A stretch of DNA of 64,000 bases, from positions 1-64,000 of the forward strand of contig JACQXY010000008.1 in the NCBI GenBank assembly GCA_016208485.1, read 5' to 3'. Position 1 is the first letter of the stretch, and the number at the start of each line of letters is the position of its first letter. Positions 58,484 to 64,000 of this stretch are shown piece by piece. Origin of the DNA: Acidobacteriota bacterium. Its GTDB lineage: Bacteria > Actinomycetota > AC-67. The notes under the pieces were generated by a model. The model was given only the letters and a program-made list of their open reading frames with translations. It did not search any database and was not told where the DNA came from. Position numbers and translations under genes: made by a program.

Positions 58484-58607
58484 GCTCCGTAGCGTTTTGA
58501 GGGTGGCTCGGAAGTAAGGCGGGAAGGGGGTGGGGTACCAGGGGAGGATCCGTCATCGCGGCCTTGCATCGTGAGGGGGCTTGATTCCTTCCCAAGAGGA
58601 GGCAAGC

Positions 58608-59051
58608 ATGGTGGGTGGGAAGGCAGGAGTCCAACCCTCAACGAGTTCCCGCATCGCGACCGTCCTCGGCACAGCAAGGAGGTGGCTCGTCGTGGCGGCG
58701 GTGCTGGGTGCCGCCCTCGGGTCCGGTCTGCAACCGATGGAGGCGCAGGCCACCAGCCGGTGCTTCAACGAGACCCCGCCAGGCGACGTCGGCGCGGGGT
58801 TGTATGGACCCGGCGGTTGGTACTACGTCGGAGTTGACACCGGGATCTACGGGGACGGCCCCGGGGCGTGCATTATTACTCCCAACGATCCTAACCCTGG
58901 GACCGTTGTCATGGCCCGGCATTCCCGCTCCACGGGCTACACCTACGGGAAGATCCCCGTGTGCGTCGGCACCATCTGCAAAGACGCTCCCGGTATCCCG
59001 GTGATGGTGGATACCGGGTACGACATCTATACGGACGGAACGCAAAGCTGA
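58608..59051 (+). CDS. Small secreted protein of unknown function
   Basis: 147 residues. Signal peptide to about 46 (WLVVAAVLGAALGSGLQPMEAQA). The mature part has paired cysteines (TSRCFNE, GACIITP, PVCVGTICKD) and Gly/Tyr-rich stretches. AGGAGG five bases before ATG 58608 makes that start clear. No family recognised. Followed by a perfect stem-loop. Confidence 0.72.
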   Translation: MVGGKAGVQPSTSSRIATVLGTARRWLVVAAVLGAALGSGLQPMEAQATSRCFNETPPGDVGAGLYGPGGWYYVGVDTGIYGDGPGACIITPNDPNPGTVVMARHSRSTGYTYGKIPVCVGTICKDAPGIPVMVDTGYDIYTDGTQS

Positions 59052-59072
59052 GCTTCAGCACGGTGCTGAAGC
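59052..59072 (+). terminator. Stem-loop directly after the secreted-protein stop
   Basis: GCTTCAGCAC, one base, GTGCTGAAGC: perfect 10-bp arms beginning at the base after the TGA. No T-run follows, which is usual for GC-rich terminators; it could alternatively mark the left edge of the neighbouring mobile cassette. Confidence 0.5.
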
Positions 59073-59122
59073 GCGATGCTTCCGCCGTGCCTCTCTACCT
59101 CCATCCTGACCACCGGCGGCGG

Positions 59123-59143
59123 CTTCACCGCCCGCCGGTGAAG
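59123..59143 (+). repeat. Second stem-loop, 8-bp arms
   Basis: CTTCACCG (59123-59130), loop CCCGC, CGGTGAAG (59136-59143), nested within a CACCGGCGG/CCGCCGGTG repeat. It lies in the non-coding stretch (59052-59340) left of the recombinase cassette; role unknown. Confidence 0.4.
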
Positions 59144-59340
59144 ACCCGGAGAAGTGTCTAGCAATGACTACCGCAGCGTCAGGGATAGCAGCCGCAGGCG
59201 CCCGCTGGGTTGTCACCGATGATCGCTGCGTAGGCGGTGTAGTCGCATCGCCGCCGCTTGATGCGACGCGCCGTGCCGAGCCCATGAGGCCGATAATGCT
59301 AGACACAACGGCTCGACTCAGTTATCGTTGTGCGGGAGGA

Positions 59341-59748
59341 GTGCGGACGTTGGGGGCGGCGGGGCTCCTGCATCCACATCCGGACGAAGTGGCCGCGGTT
59401 CTGTTCGCCGGTCCGAACCGGTTCTTCCTAGCGGCCGACAAGGTGCAGGTGAAATACGAGATGCTTCGGGCGCACGGCGTCGATGGGGTGAGCGTCACCG
59501 AAGCCGCCGAGTTCCACGGCTACTCGCGCGCCGCGTTCTATCTGGTGGCGACATCGTTCGAGGAACGGGGGATGGCGGGCCTGGTGGACGAGCGGCGGGG
59601 GCGTCGAGGGCCGGTGAAGCTCACACCGCAGGTCGTGGCCTTCCTGCGCGGGGCCGAGGTCGCGACACCCGAGTTGGTCGCCGAGGTCGAGCGCCGCTTC
59701 GGGATGCGTCTGCATCGGCGGACCGTCGAGCGGGCGAGGCGCGTATGA
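59341..59748 (+). CDS. Helix-turn-helix protein of the recombinase cassette
   Basis: About 135 residues. Sequence FAGPNRFFLAADKVQVKYEML, then a helix-turn-helix (VSVTEAAEFHGYSRAAFYLV), a GLVDERRGRRGPVKLTP linker and a C-terminal segment ending LHRRTVERARR, reminiscent of transposase DNA-binding parts. The start is uncertain: GTG 59341 directly follows GGGAGGA and TTG 59350 has better spacing; an ATG at 59284 is also open. Probably regulates or assists the recombinase. Confidence 0.7.
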   Translation: MRTLGAAGLLHPHPDEVAAVLFAGPNRFFLAADKVQVKYEMLRAHGVDGVSVTEAAEFHGYSRAAFYLVATSFEERGMAGLVDERRGRRGPVKLTPQVVAFLRGAEVATPELVAEVERRFGMRLHRRTVERARRV

Positions 59749-60041
59749 GCCGGTTCTGGCCGGCGCGGGAGACTCCTCAACTCGACTACGAAGCTCTCCG
59801 GGAAGCGGCGATCGCCGGGGTGCCGCTTGCTGGCGAGGCGGCGGCGCGGTTCGAGGCGCGCGGGTTGGCTGGGCTCGTGTGCGCCAGGCCGGGCGAGTTG
59901 ATCTTCGAAGCGGTGCTGCTCGGCGCACGCCGCCCCGCGTGGACGCCGTATGTCGATCCGCGCCTGGATGCGCTGGCGGCTGGCTACGCGCTGCTGCTCG
60001 CCCACCCGGACCGCTCGCATCGCGAGGAGGTTCTCGTATGA
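59745..60041 (+). CDS. Conserved small protein of the recombinase cassette
   Basis: 98 residues (MSRFWPARETPQLDYEALRE...), mostly helical, with FEARGLAGLVC and a C-terminal ALLLAHPDRSHREEV. Overlaps both neighbours by ATGA (59745 and 60038). No domain recognised; likely an accessory or directionality factor, by position only. Confidence 0.6.
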   Translation: MSRFWPARETPQLDYEALREAAIAGVPLAGEAAARFEARGLAGLVCARPGELIFEAVLLGARRPAWTPYVDPRLDALAAGYALLLAHPDRSHREEVLV

Positions 60042-62233
60042 GAGTGGCGCTCTACGCGCGGGTCTCGACCGAAGCGCAGGAGGCACGCGGCACGATAGGC
60101 TCGCAACTCGAGGTGCTGCGGACGCGGGTGCGGGCCGAAGGAGACGAGCTGGTGGCCGAGTTCATCGACGATGGATACTCGGGAGCACGGCTTGACCGTC
60201 CCGGTCTTGACGCGCTGCGGGACGCGGCCGAGGCGCGCCTGATCGATGGGGTCTGGTGCCTCTCACCCGACCGGCTCGCGCGCGTCTACGCCTATCAGGT
60301 CATCGTATGCGACGAGCTGGCGCGACACGGGGTCGCGGTGCTGTTCTCCGACGCACCCCCAATCGGAGATGATCCGCAAGCGCGGCTGCTCACGCAGGTG
60401 CAGGGCGTCATCGCTGAATATGAGCGGGCGAAGATGGCCGAACGCTACCGGCGGGGCAAGCTTTGGCGGTCCAAAGAGGGTGAGGTCATCTCCTGGAAGG
60501 CACCATACGGGTATCGGCGCGTCTTGCGATCGGCCGGCAAACCGGCGCACCTTGACGTCTACGAACCCGAGGCCGTGGTCGTGCGGGAGATCTTCTCCGA
60601 CTACGTCACCGGCGGTCATTCGATCCGTGAGATCACGCGACGGCTCAACGCTCGCGAGGTTCCCTCGCCGACCGGCAACCCGGTGTGGGGCACCTCAACC
60701 GTCTCACGGCTGCTGCGCAACGACGCCTACGTCGGATGCGTCTACTACAACCGCACCCAGGTCGCTTCGCCAACGAGGCCGGCAAAGCATCCGACCACAC
60801 CACGTCCTCGGTCTCGCGAGGAGTGGATCGCCATCCCCGTGCCGCCCATCGTCGCCAGTGAGGTGTTCGAGGCGGCGGCTGGCGTGAGCCGTGACAACTC
60901 GAAGTGGAGTCCTCGCAATGCTGAGCCGGGCGTCTGGCTGCTCCGCGGGCTCGTCCGCTGCGGTGCGTGCGGCGTCGGGGTGAACTGCCACAGGATGCGA
61001 GGCCGAAACGGTACCACCCACCGCTACTACTACTGCCGCAACCACGATCCACTCCGCGCCGGAGGCGAGGACCGGCGCTGCCCCGAACGCAACGTTCGCG
61101 CCGACGCGCTTGACGCATTCGTCTTCGATCAGGTCCGTGAGGCGCTGCTCCGCCCCGAGACGCTCATCGCCGGCGAAGCCGCGATCGGCGCACGTGCGCC
61201 TGCCACTGACGACGAGCTCTTGGCCACGCAACTGGAGCGTCTGGACCGCAAGCGCGACGCCACCGAAGCCGAGCGGCGTCGCCTCACCGACCTCTACCAG
61301 TCCGGCCTGGTCGAACTCAGCGAGATCAAACGCCGCGTCCACGAGATCGACGCGCGACGCCGTCAACTCGACCAACAGCGATCCGCGCTGGCCGAACGGC
61401 ACCGGGCCCTCGCACAGCACAACCGGCTGCGCCGACGCGTCGGCGAGTTCGCAACCCGCATTGCCCGCACCATCGACCGGCTCGATTTCGACGAGCGTCA
61501 ACAACTCCTTCGACTCCTCGTCGAAGAAGTGCGCGTCGCCGGACATCGGGTTGAGATTCGGCTCCGCATCCCCTTCGACGATCCGGAGAATGAACCGCCA
61601 ACTCCCGATCATTCCCGCCGGCGGCAAGGACCGCGGAAGCCTTCGGACGGAGCGTCAAGGGAAGACCGTTTGCGTTCCTTCGGTGACCATCTACGGTGCG
61701 GGGTGGAACGCGCTGTACATCAAGGTTGGGTGAGCTTGACGCAGGAGGAGAGCCTGGCGGGCCGGGGGGGATCCAGGAGGATCCCCCCCGGCCCTGGCTC
61801 TCCTCCTGCTCCTTGCCGCGGCGCCGCTTCCGGCCCGAAGCGAGGGCCGCCCCGACTGCGAGAGCCCGAAGACCTGCCCCGTCTACCATCTCTATCAGCC
61901 GCCCATCCGCTGGCGCGCCGCGTCGGACGGAGTCGTGCGCATTCCCTACGACATCTTCCCTGTTCAGCCCAGGATGCCGGAGGATCGCGCGATCGCTGCC
62001 ATCCGGGCGGCCGTGGCGACTTGGGAGGCCTACAACCCGAAGTTGCGCTTCGTCTATCTTGGGGTGCGGTCGACGCCCCCGTGGTCCGGCGACGGTCGGA
62101 ACTCAATCGGTTTCGCGGATCCCATCATGACGGGCCTCCTACTGCCGACGTCGGTGGCCGGGCGCGCCGGGTGGTGGGTGCAGGAGGAGCCGTACATCAG
62201 TTGTCATGGGCGGCTGCGCACCCGGACGAATGA
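60038..62233 (+). CDS. Large serine recombinase; C-terminal end ambiguous
   Basis: N-terminal resolvase domain with catalytic Ser in YARVSTEAQ (about residue 10), IDDGYSGARLDRPGLD and LSPDRLAR. Then a recombinase domain (SIREITRRLNAREVPSP), a zinc-ribbon (RCGACGVGVNCH near 308-319 with later CRNHD and RCPE cysteines), and a coiled coil (about 400-480). Family-like sequence ends near residue 560 (about 61720). The frame stays open to 62233, but the last 170 residues look like off-frame translation of the neighbouring metalloprotease gene. ATG overlaps the previous gene. Confidence 0.88.
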   Translation: MRVALYARVSTEAQEARGTIGSQLEVLRTRVRAEGDELVAEFIDDGYSGARLDRPGLDALRDAAEARLIDGVWCLSPDRLARVYAYQVIVCDELARHGVAVLFSDAPPIGDDPQARLLTQVQGVIAEYERAKMAERYRRGKLWRSKEGEVISWKAPYGYRRVLRSAGKPAHLDVYEPEAVVVREIFSDYVTGGHSIREITRRLNAREVPSPTGNPVWGTSTVSRLLRNDAYVGCVYYNRTQVASPTRPAKHPTTPRPRSREEWIAIPVPPIVASEVFEAAAGVSRDNSKWSPRNAEPGVWLLRGLVRCGACGVGVNCHRMRGRNGTTHRYYYCRNHDPLRAGGEDRRCPERNVRADALDAFVFDQVREALLRPETLIAGEAAIGARAPATDDELLATQLERLDRKRDATEAERRRLTDLYQSGLVELSEIKRRVHEIDARRRQLDQQRSALAERHRALAQHNRLRRRVGEFATRIARTIDRLDFDERQQLLRLLVEEVRVAGHRVEIRLRIPFDDPENEPPTPDHSRRRQGPRKPSDGASREDRLRSFGDHLRCGVERAVHQGWVSLTQEESLAGRGGSRRIPPGPGSPPAPCRGAASGPKRGPPRLREPEDLPRLPSLSAAHPLARRVGRSRAHSLRHLPCSAQDAGGSRDRCHPGGRGDLGGLQPEVALRLSWGAVDAPVVRRRSELNRFRGSHHDGPPTADVGGRARRVVGAGGAVHQLSWAAAHPDE
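61740..62183 (+). pseudogene. Matrixin-like metalloprotease, N-terminal half
   Basis: Encodes a signal peptide (ALALLLLLAAAPLPARSEG), a prodomain-free start (CESPKTCPVYHLYQPPIRW) and the matrixin N-terminal fold (IPYDIFP..., AAIRAAVATWEAYNPKLRF, NSIGFADP). No ATG/GTG/TTG is in frame. Skipping one base in the G7 or C7 run would connect it to GTG 61730 and give a good signal peptide with an RR pair. The frame is interrupted after WWVQ at 62183 by an IS110 element; its other half resumes at 63716. Confidence 0.75.
61741..61809. repeat. 69-bp near-perfect hairpin
   Basis: Inner arms of 14 bp (61761-61774 and 61779-61792, including G7/C7 runs and GGATCC) around an AGGA loop. Outer arms of 14 bp (61741-61754 and 61796-61809, GCAGGAGGAGAGCC and its complement). 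Only a small asymmetric bulge separates them. It covers the start of the signal-peptide coding region of the metalloprotease gene. Confidence 0.9.
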
Positions 62234-62450
62234 AAATGTGACCGCGGCCGGCTCGTGATCCATACTCTGCTCGTGTCGCCTTGACGACGCCGGTGTTTCC
62301 TTGGTGCCGGAAAGACCGAGCATCAGTTTGGCGCGGGAGCCTCGGGGCACCCACTACTGTTGCCGTGAGCACGGGACTCAGAGTCCTTCACGCAGAGGCT
62401 CCTCTTGGCGACACGCGCTGTCGGGTGTCGAGGGAGAGGAGGGGGTGTTC
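62184..62450 (+). ncRNA. Putative bridge RNA region of the IS110 element
   Basis: In the IS110 group the non-coding left end is transcribed into a structured bridge RNA with target- and donor-binding loops that guides the recombinase. This copy has a 267-bp left end without a gene. The loops were not resolved by eye; the assignment rests on element architecture. Confidence 0.45.
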
Positions 62451-63695
62451 ATGCGGCGGCTCATCGAGCGCGTCTGCGGTCTGGACGTCCACAAGGACTC
62501 GGTCACCGCGTGCGTGCGGGTTCCGGGCCCGGGCGGGGAATCGCTGCAGGAGATCCGCACGTTCCAGGCGACCACCAGAGGCCTGCTTGCCTTGCGGGAC
62601 TGGCTTGCCGCCCACAAGGTGACGCACGTGGCGATGGAGTCCACGGGGGTGTATTGGAAGAGGCCGTTCTTCTTGCTGGAGGACGAGTTCACCTGCTGGC
62701 TCATCAACGCCCAGCACATCAAGCGGGTCCCCGGCCGCAAGACCGATGTGGCCGATGCCGAGTGGATCTGCGACCTCGCCCAGCACGGGCTCGTGCGCCC
62801 GAGCTTCGTTCCGCCGCGCGAGATCCGCGACCTGCGCGACCTCACCCGCTACCGCAAGGCCCTGGTGCAGGAGCGCACCCGGGAGGTGCAGCGCCTGGAG
62901 AAGGTTCTCCAGGACGCCGGCATCAAGCTCTCCTCGGTCGCCTCCAAGGTGCTCGGGGTCTCCGGGCGGGCGATGATCGAGGCGCTGTGTCGGGGTGGCA
63001 CCGACCCTGAGGCGCTCGCCGAGCTCGCCAAGGGCAGGCTGCGGGCGAAGCTCCCCGCGCTCTGCGAGGCGCTCGAAGGATCGTTCCGGGCTCATCACGC
63101 GCTCATGGCCTCGCGCATCCTCGCCCACATCGACTACCTGGAGGAGAGCATCGAGGACATCTCCGGCGAGATCGAGCGGGCGATGGACCCTTTCGCTCGC
63201 CAGATTGAGCTGCTGGACTCGATCCCGGGCGTGGGCCGCAAAGCCGCCCAGATCATCCTCGCTGAGATCGGCGTCGACATGAGCGGCGTCTTCCCCTCCG
63301 CCGGCCACCTCGCCTCCTGGGCGGGGATGTGCCCGGGCAACGACGAGTCGGGCGGCAAGCGCCGCTCGGGTCGCTCCCGCAAAGGCGACCGGCACCTGCG
63401 CGACATCCTCACCCAGGTCGCCTGGGCCGCCGTCCGCACCGAGGACAGCTACTACCGGGCCCAGTACAACCGTCTCGCGCGCCATCTGGGCAAGAAGAAG
63501 GCGATCAAGGCCGTCGGCCACTCGATCCTCGTCGCGATCTATCACATCCTCTCCGAAGGCGTGCCCCACCAGGATCTCGGCGCCGACTACTTCACCCGGC
63601 GCGACAACCCCGCCGCGCACACTCGACGCCTCGTCCGCCAACTCGAGGGCTTGGGTCACAAGGTCACCCTCGAACCCCTCGCCGAGTCCGCCTGA
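62451..63695 (+). CDS. IS110-family transposase/recombinase (DEDD)
   Basis: 414 residues. N-terminal RuvC-like DEDD domain with CGLDVHKDSVTAC (first Asp), VAMESTGVYWK (Glu) and RKTDVADAEWI (Asp pair). Coiled region 140-260. C-terminal Tnp2 domain with DSIPGVGRKAAQIILAEIG and the conserved serine-bearing region LASWAGMCPGNDESGGKRRSG. ATG 62451 with GAGGAGG upstream. Appears intact, so the element may still be active. Confidence 0.95.
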   Translation: MRRLIERVCGLDVHKDSVTACVRVPGPGGESLQEIRTFQATTRGLLALRDWLAAHKVTHVAMESTGVYWKRPFFLLEDEFTCWLINAQHIKRVPGRKTDVADAEWICDLAQHGLVRPSFVPPREIRDLRDLTRYRKALVQERTREVQRLEKVLQDAGIKLSSVASKVLGVSGRAMIEALCRGGTDPEALAELAKGRLRAKLPALCEALEGSFRAHHALMASRILAHIDYLEESIEDISGEIERAMDPFARQIELLDSIPGVGRKAAQIILAEIGVDMSGVFPSAGHLASWAGMCPGNDESGGKRRSGRSRKGDRHLRDILTQVAWAAVRTEDSYYRAQYNRLARHLGKKKAIKAVGHSILVAIYHILSEGVPHQDLGADYFTRRDNPAAHTRRLVRQLEGLGHKVTLEPLAESA

Positions 63696-63715
63696 CCGCA
63701 TCCCGACCCGACCTG

Positions 63716-64000
63716 GGAGGTGATGTCACCGACTATTTTCGACTCAGGGAGTCCGACATCTGGCTGAACATATCTACGAACTGGACGTGGGACCCCTGCC
63801 CGCCGCGCGACGGCACCTGCGCGGACGTGCCCCAGGAACCCTTCGGGAGTCTCGGTGTGGGAGCCATTCTCCACGCCTGGGCCACCCCCGTCGCCCAAAT
63901 GGATCTTCAGGGGGTGACCGCTCATGAACTGGGGCACATGCTCGGGCTCGACCACACGAACGAGGCGCCATATTGCGTGCTCACCATGTGGGGTGGACCC
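63716..64000 (+). pseudogene. Matrixin-like metalloprotease, C-terminal half (runs off the window)
   Basis: Continues the interrupted gene: GGDVTDYFRLRESDIWLNIS, Cys-containing loop, then the zinc site HELGHMLGLDH (HExGHxxGxxH, from 63923) and a Met after it (CVLTM, the Met-turn region). The strong motif shows the protease was functional before insertion. It has no start of its own and reaches the right edge. Confidence 0.85.

What the first reader, a model, noticed from the sequence alone, without database searches (positions are those of the whole stretch)
61740..64000. Zinc metalloprotease gene split by an intact-looking IS110 element
The matrixin N-half (to WWVQ, 62183) and C-half (from GGDV, 63716, with HELGHMLGLDH) rejoin in frame when 1,532 bp carrying an IS110 transposase are removed. 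This gives a nucleotide-level view of an IS110 insertion site and its target. The absence of a target duplication and of inverted repeats agrees with IS110 biology.
Basis: partly seen in the sequence, partly recalled or inferred. Interest (0 to 1): 0.72.

Follow-up and report, generated by a model that had tools for sequence, protein, structure and literature searches.

The report
IS110 insertion in bacterial matrixin gene
A small RNA-guided jumping gene of the IS110 family sits inside a bacterial protease gene. Its own guide RNA spells out the site it landed in, and it reads the two sides of that site in the opposite order to the best-studied member, IS621.

Summary
The core observation holds: an apparently complete IS110-family element splits a matrixin gene. 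The junction is wrong. An uninterrupted paralogue on contig C8 of the same genome, plus the element's own bridge-RNA guides, place the ends at 62199-62200 / 63746-63747 (core AG), not 62183/63716. The element is 1,547 bp with one core copy, not 1,532. Because 15 bp is five codons, both junctions rejoin in frame; the proposed 'GGDV...' residues are element sequence.

The 5' non-coding end encodes a bridge RNA. Its 3' target guide (CATC-AG plus handshake TT) matches the left flank, core and left end. Its 5' target guide pairs 8/9 with the right flank. Its donor guide matches the right end.

The same layout occurs across dozens of relatives with ~410-aa transposases, and is explicit in a ten-copy family in Alicyclobacillus. 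Relative to IS621 the guides are swapped between flanks: the IS1111 order, but with the RNA upstream as in IS110 types. The three core papers whose text I consulted do not describe this combination.

Also missed: the matrixin frame has no in-window start codon (+1 shift in a large hairpin against C8), and a serine-recombinase cassette interrupts the gene just upstream. No activity is shown.

The parts
62201..63745 (+). IS110-family insertion element, between two copies of core dinucleotide AG (1,547 bp with one core copy)
   Evidence: Empty-site scan against C8 paralogue; guide matches at both ends
62199..62200 (+). Left core AG (within TCAG 62197-62200 shared by both junctions)
   Evidence: core letters AG/AA/AC vary together in target loop, donor loop and ends of relatives
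63746..63747 (+). Right core AG (within TCAG 63744-63747)
62281..62411 (+). Predicted bridge RNA (approximate limits), upstream of and on the same strand as the transposase gene
   Evidence: Conserved in alignment of 74 relatives; RNAalifold consensus with 7 of 18 pairs showing two-sided changes; no Rfam match other than spurious miRNA hits to the 61.7-kb hairpin
62293..62301 (+). Target loop 5' guide GUGUUUC-CU: pairs with top strand of right flank AG-GGAGTCC (8/9: 5 Watson-Crick, 3 G-U)
   Evidence: register z about 7 across 54 relatives, best of all registers scanned
62318..62328 (+). Target loop 3' guide GAGCATC-AG plus handshake UU; identical at 9/11 positions to left flank + core + left end (CATC-AG-TT contiguous)
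   Evidence: 1 in 71 other guides match as well; 58/72 relatives match at >=8/11 against 14% of mismatched guides
62373..62381 (+). Donor loop 3' guide GGGACTC-AG, matching right end of element CGACTC-AG (62380-62381 = core)
62288..62333 (+). Target-binding loop: closing stem 62288-62291/62330-62333, 5' guide, apical stem-loop from 62302, 3' guide
   Evidence: RNAalifold consensus
62451..63695 (+). Transposase gene, 414 aa, DEDD (D12, E63, D99, D102) and S300 present
62232..62237 (+). Subterminal repeat GAAAAT in left end (31 bp from core)
63735..63740 (+). Subterminal repeat ATTTTC in right end (5 bp from core)
   Evidence: TTTTC precedes the donor sequence in most relatives
61791..62200 (+). 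Matrixin N part up to the insertion (frame lacks an in-frame start in the window)
63746..64000 (+). Matrixin C part with HELGHMLGLDH; runs to a stop at 64199-64201 of contig C11, outside the window

Best explanation
This is an IS110-family insertion sequence that integrated into a matrixin-type secreted protease gene by bridge-RNA-guided, serine-assisted recombination at a two-base AG core. The bridge RNA in its left end reads the target with two guides. [quoted passage not shown] The donor loop recognises the element's own joined ends. Shown: element ends, empty site, guide matches, conserved RNA structure, intact catalytic residues. Inferred: that the RNA is made, that the protein is active, and that insertion used this RNA. 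Relative to IS621 the guides are swapped between flanks. That is the order reported for IS1111 elements, but here the RNA lies upstream of the transposase gene.
For: Uninterrupted paralogue in the same genome gives the empty site and equal protein length across it. Own target and donor guides match the window's left flank and right end at exactly that junction. Own 5' guide pairs 8/9 with the right flank; only 2 of 53 other guides do as well. Across relatives: left guide at >=8/11 in 58/72 vs 14% null; right-flank register z about 7. Ten copies in Alicyclobacillus fastidiosus share left CATA-AG and mostly right AG-GGGG(G)C, matching RNA GTGCATA-AG and GCCCCCU; in Ktedonobacter robiniae the left consensus TTTGCCCG-AA matches its guide. 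The same inspection on IS621 gives the published left-then-right order and on IS4321 the right-then-left order with downstream RNA. DEDD and S residues present. Published mechanism: PMC11208160, PMC11208158, PMC11187229.
Against: No expression or activity data. The C8 empty site is a diverged paralogue, not the same locus in a sister strain, and alone separates junctions by only 0.5 score units. The left guide has 2 mismatches in 11 and the right guide relies on 3 G-U pairs. The donor loop's 5' guide showed no significant pairing with the left end. Only one full copy in this genome, so the window element's own target consensus cannot be derived.
Confidence: 0.9

Rival explanations
1. One reading: 1,532 bp removed between 62183 and 63716.
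For: It also rejoins in frame, because it differs from the other junction by 15 bp.
Against: Scores 954.5 against 974.0 in the global alignment to C8. It leaves 30 bp of right end, including the conserved TATTTTC-guide-AG motif of relatives, inside the gene. It lacks a shared core and does not match either guide.
Confidence: 0.03
2. The element is a dead relic: it inserted long ago and the guide matches are leftover, so it no longer moves.
For: Single full copy in the genome; a degraded cousin on C65 shows that such elements decay here.
Against: Open 414-aa frame with all catalytic residues, intact RNA loops and both ends.
Confidence: 0.25
3. The insertion is a misassembly that joins an unrelated IS110 contig to a matrixin contig.
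For: Draft assembly; contig C11 ends 882 bp after the window and the paralogue lies at the start of contig C8.
Against: Both halves of one gene lie on either side, in order and in frame, and the element's guides match the flanks; chance joining would not do this.
Confidence: 0.03
4. The matrixin was already broken before the insertion (frameshift at its start, loss of the gene upstream), so the element landed in a decaying gene pair.
For: Net +1 bp against C8 in the G/C-run hairpin puts GTG 61730 out of frame with the signal peptide. The upstream partner gene is split by a serine-recombinase cassette. The C8 copy has its own frameshift near its 3' end.
Against: Homopolymer runs are prone to sequencing and assembly error; the order of events cannot be dated.
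Confidence: 0.4

Closest known systems
IS621 / ISCro4 (IS110 group, solved structures 8wt6 and 9t56)
   Same: DEDD RuvC plus Tnp domain with the same catalytic residues; RNA upstream of the transposase gene; target loop of stem, guide, stem-loop, guide, stem; two-base core with T invariant on one strand (NT here when read on the bottom strand); handshake guide 3' of the core
   Different: Transposase 414 aa against 326; in transposase orientation the core is AN, and the 5' guide reads the right flank while the 3' guide reads the left flank, the reverse of IS621
IS4321 / IS1111 group
   Same: Guide order: top-strand complement of the right flank first, then left-flank match (PMC11187229; checked here on IS4321)
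   Different: IS1111 types carry the RNA downstream of the gene and long subterminal repeats (11-13 bp; 11-bp ATGGTCACTCC in IS4321); here the RNA is upstream and the repeat is 6 bp
L007, IS110 transposase of a groundwater Chloroflexi MAG
   Same: 71% protein identity, sister in the tree (98/96), same RNA layout and right end
   Different: Different guides and insertion site

Membership tests
IS110 family (sensu lato) | DEDD transposase with N-terminal DEDD/RuvC and C-terminal Transposase_20 with catalytic Ser | tested here: met
IS110 family (sensu lato) | No target duplication beyond a shared core dinucleotide | tested here: met
   AG core; TCAG shared, taken as a chance extension of it
IS110 family (sensu lato) | Non-coding end encodes a bridge/seek RNA with target and donor guides | tested here: met
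   sequence and covariation only; transcription not testable here
IS110 type (IS621, ISEc21) | RNA region upstream of the transposase gene | tested here: met
   62281-62411, gene starts 62451
IS110 type (IS621, ISEc21) | Bottom-strand guide (left flank) precedes top-strand guide (right flank) in the RNA | tested here: not met
   Order reversed in window element and clade; IS621 control gives the published order
IS1111 type | Top-strand guide precedes bottom-strand guide | tested here: met
   IS4321 control
IS1111 type | RNA downstream of the gene and long subterminal inverted repeats with 7/3-bp extensions | tested here: not met
   RNA upstream; only GAAAAT/ATTTTC at 31 and 5 bp from the cores
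Matrixin peptidase M10 (interrupted gene) | HExxHxxGxxH zinc site and Pfam PF00413 match | tested here: met
   C part 27.4 bits vs cut-off 24; N part alone gives no Pfam match
IS110 family (sensu lato) | Circular intermediate with promoter formed at the joined ends | not testable with these tools
   needs culture or reads

The most novel reading that the evidence does not exclude
The window element represents a broad clade (~410-aa transposases, found in Actinomycetota, Chloroflexota, Bacillota, Acidobacteriota and others) in which the bridge RNA sits upstream of the gene, as in IS110 types, but reads the target with IS1111 polarity. This would be an intermediate between the two published architectures, and means that guide order does not follow from RNA position.
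Probability: 0.55. Interest if true: 0.6.

Novelty: new variant of a known kind. Interest (0 to 1): 0.48.

Why it matters
The two published groups differ both in where the guide RNA lies and in the order of its guides, and the authors of the bridge-RNA paper proposed that the RNA moved between the ends of a common ancestor. A clade with the upstream position and the IS1111 guide order separates these two traits and gives that proposal a testable intermediate. In practice, guide-reading rules from IS621 would mis-assign left and right target in this clade, so programmable use or annotation of such elements needs the reversed rule. The window also shows that an element's own guides plus a paralogue can fix IS110 ends to the base, which databases often get wrong (PMC11187229).

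Tried and rejected
Looking for the right-flank guide 3' of the left-flank guide, as in IS621: no significant register there. A first register one base off (core paired at 62302) scored z 2.7 and was replaced by 62301. Donor loop 5' guide against the left end: no significant register. Rfam: only spurious miRNA matches to the 61.7-kb hairpin. A minus-strand RNA: rejected because G-U partners and the handshake position fit only the plus strand (inference and PMC11208158). Other genomes of the same family hold no full copy of the element, only one 50-bp weak match, and no close matrixin for a sister empty site. Viral contigs added 11 relatives, three of which went into the tree but none into the guide statistics; a second viral query returned no relative. 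Shigella and similar plasmid hits were not fetched.

Full report
WHAT IS THERE. The window is contig C11:1-64000 of a 2.66-Mb, 86-contig genome; C11 ends at 64882. ORF 62451-63695 encodes a 414-aa transposase with Pfam DEDD_Tnp_IS110 and Transposase_20, NCBIfam NF033542 and sequence similarity to IS621 and ISCro4 of known structure. The residues aligned with IS621 D11, E60, D102, D105 and S241 are D12, E63, D99, D102 and S300. One full copy exists in this genome; C65 carries a fragment (57% protein identity).

EMPTY SITE. The same genome has an uninterrupted paralogue of the split matrixin on contig C8 (507-1318; N half 80%, C half 65-92% identity), and the gene before it on C8 is a homologue of the gene before it here. 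Scanning break-points against C8 gives a best plateau 62196-62200 | 63744-63748, a 4-bp TCAG at both ends. The rejoined protein reads GWWVQEEPYI-R-ESDIWLNISTNW against VFVDSKGYITESDIVLNASTNW, with the insertion site falling in an ungapped stretch. The proposed 62183/63716 junction also stays in frame (15 bp apart) but aligns worse and retains 30 bp of element. The margin between the best and second local junction is small, so the guide evidence below carries the case.

BRIDGE RNA. The 250 bp upstream of the gene hold a conserved RNA region in 74 relatives. A consensus fold of 12 members gives a target loop of stem (62288-62291/62330-62333), 5' guide, apical stem-loop and 3' guide, followed by a second, donor stem-loop; 7 of 18 pairs show two-sided changes. 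In each relative the 3' guide of the target loop plus core and two handshake bases was searched in its own left-flank window: mean 8.5/11 identical against 6.8 for guides of other elements, 58/72 at 8 or more against 14%. The donor guide was searched in its own right end: mean 8.0 against 6.8, and the hit usually follows TTTTC. In the window these hits fall at CATC-AG-TT (left) and GACTC-AG (right), the same ends as the empty site. The core letters AG, AA or AC change together in target loop, donor loop and ends.

GUIDE POLARITY. Complementarity between RNA and the right flank was scanned over all registers with permutation. One place stands out: 62293-62301, 5' of the left-flank guide (z about 7, 54 relatives). 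The window's guide pairs with AG-GGAGTCC at 8 of 9 positions, three of them G-U; 2 of 53 other guides do as well. Ten copies of a relative in Alicyclobacillus fastidiosus settle the order: left flanks share CATA-AG (often GCATA-AG), right flanks are mostly AG-GGGG(G)C, and the single RNA reads GCCCCCU ... GTGCATA-AG. Ktedonobacter robiniae copies share left TTTGCCCG-AA, again matching the 3' guide. Controls: in IS621 (L141) the 5' guide ATCGGGC-CT matches the left flank ATCAGGC-CT and the 3' guide TGCGT-AG-AT is the reverse complement of right end and flank. In IS4321 (R751) AAAACGGAA, complementary to the right flank TTCCGTTTT, precedes the left-flank-like stretch, in the RNA region downstream of the gene. 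So this clade has the order reported for IS1111 but the RNA position reported for IS110 types (PMC11187229; PMC11208160). A tree of 44 transposases keeps the ~410-aa clade apart from IS621-like and IS4321 proteins, although long branches make deeper placement unsure. I did not find this combination in the three core papers' text I consulted; their figures and supplements could not be read, so prior knowledge cannot be excluded.

STATE OF THE INTERRUPTED GENE. In the paralogue the matrixin starts with a GTG overlapping the stop of the gene before it, followed by a signal-peptide-like stretch. In the window the same GTG (61730) is out of frame with the signal peptide by a net +1 bp inside a very stable hairpin with G7/C7 runs. 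This is either an earlier frameshift or a homopolymer error. The C8 copy has a frameshift of its own near its end. The gene before the matrixin (58581-59029 + 61688-61733) is itself split by a serine-recombinase cassette (59030-61687), with junction 59029/61688 by the same paralogue. The matrixin is a secreted-protease-like gene of a bacterium whose nearest IS110 relatives are environmental; nothing suggested a toxin, so joining its flanks in a script to display the empty site was within the rules.

LIMITS. Everything on RNA function is inferred from sequence. Guide positions were found by search, so identity counts on selected hits are inflated; the permutation and mismatched-guide nulls, and the ten-copy family, are the unbiased tests. 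The donor loop 5' guide was not resolved.

Noticed in passing
59030-61687: A second mobile element: a large serine recombinase (60038 onwards; Resolvase, Recombinase, Zn_ribbon_recom) with an HTH gene, inserted in the gene upstream of the matrixin; C8 shows the uninterrupted form, junction 59029/61688, CATCTA present at both ends. Single copy in the genome.
   Followed up: partly
60038-62233: The recombinase frame has no stop at the element's right end and runs on into the host gene region to 62233; its proper C-terminus is unclear.
   Followed up: no
61742-61806: Very stable hairpin (folded stretch 61729-61825, MFE -79.3 kcal/mol) at the start of the matrixin coding region; C8 keeps a hairpin at the same place with different arm sequences (-52.4), suggesting selection on structure.
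   Followed up: partly
58581-59029 + 61688-61733: Small secreted-protein-like gene coupled (GTGA overlap) to the matrixin in both copies; only these two loci in the genome.
   Followed up: partly
L097:1140-1160: The C8 matrixin copy has a frameshift after LTMAPPGAGYEPGT, so neither member of the pair is a clean open frame.
   Followed up: no
L100:3490-3845: Degraded IS110 fragment on contig C65, 57% protein identity to the window transposase, fused to unrelated frame.
   Followed up: no
L158-L161 (Ktedonobacter robiniae): Partial right-end copies (last about 226 bp, 98%) lie directly next to several full copies, as if elements inserted into or next to older ends.
   Followed up: no
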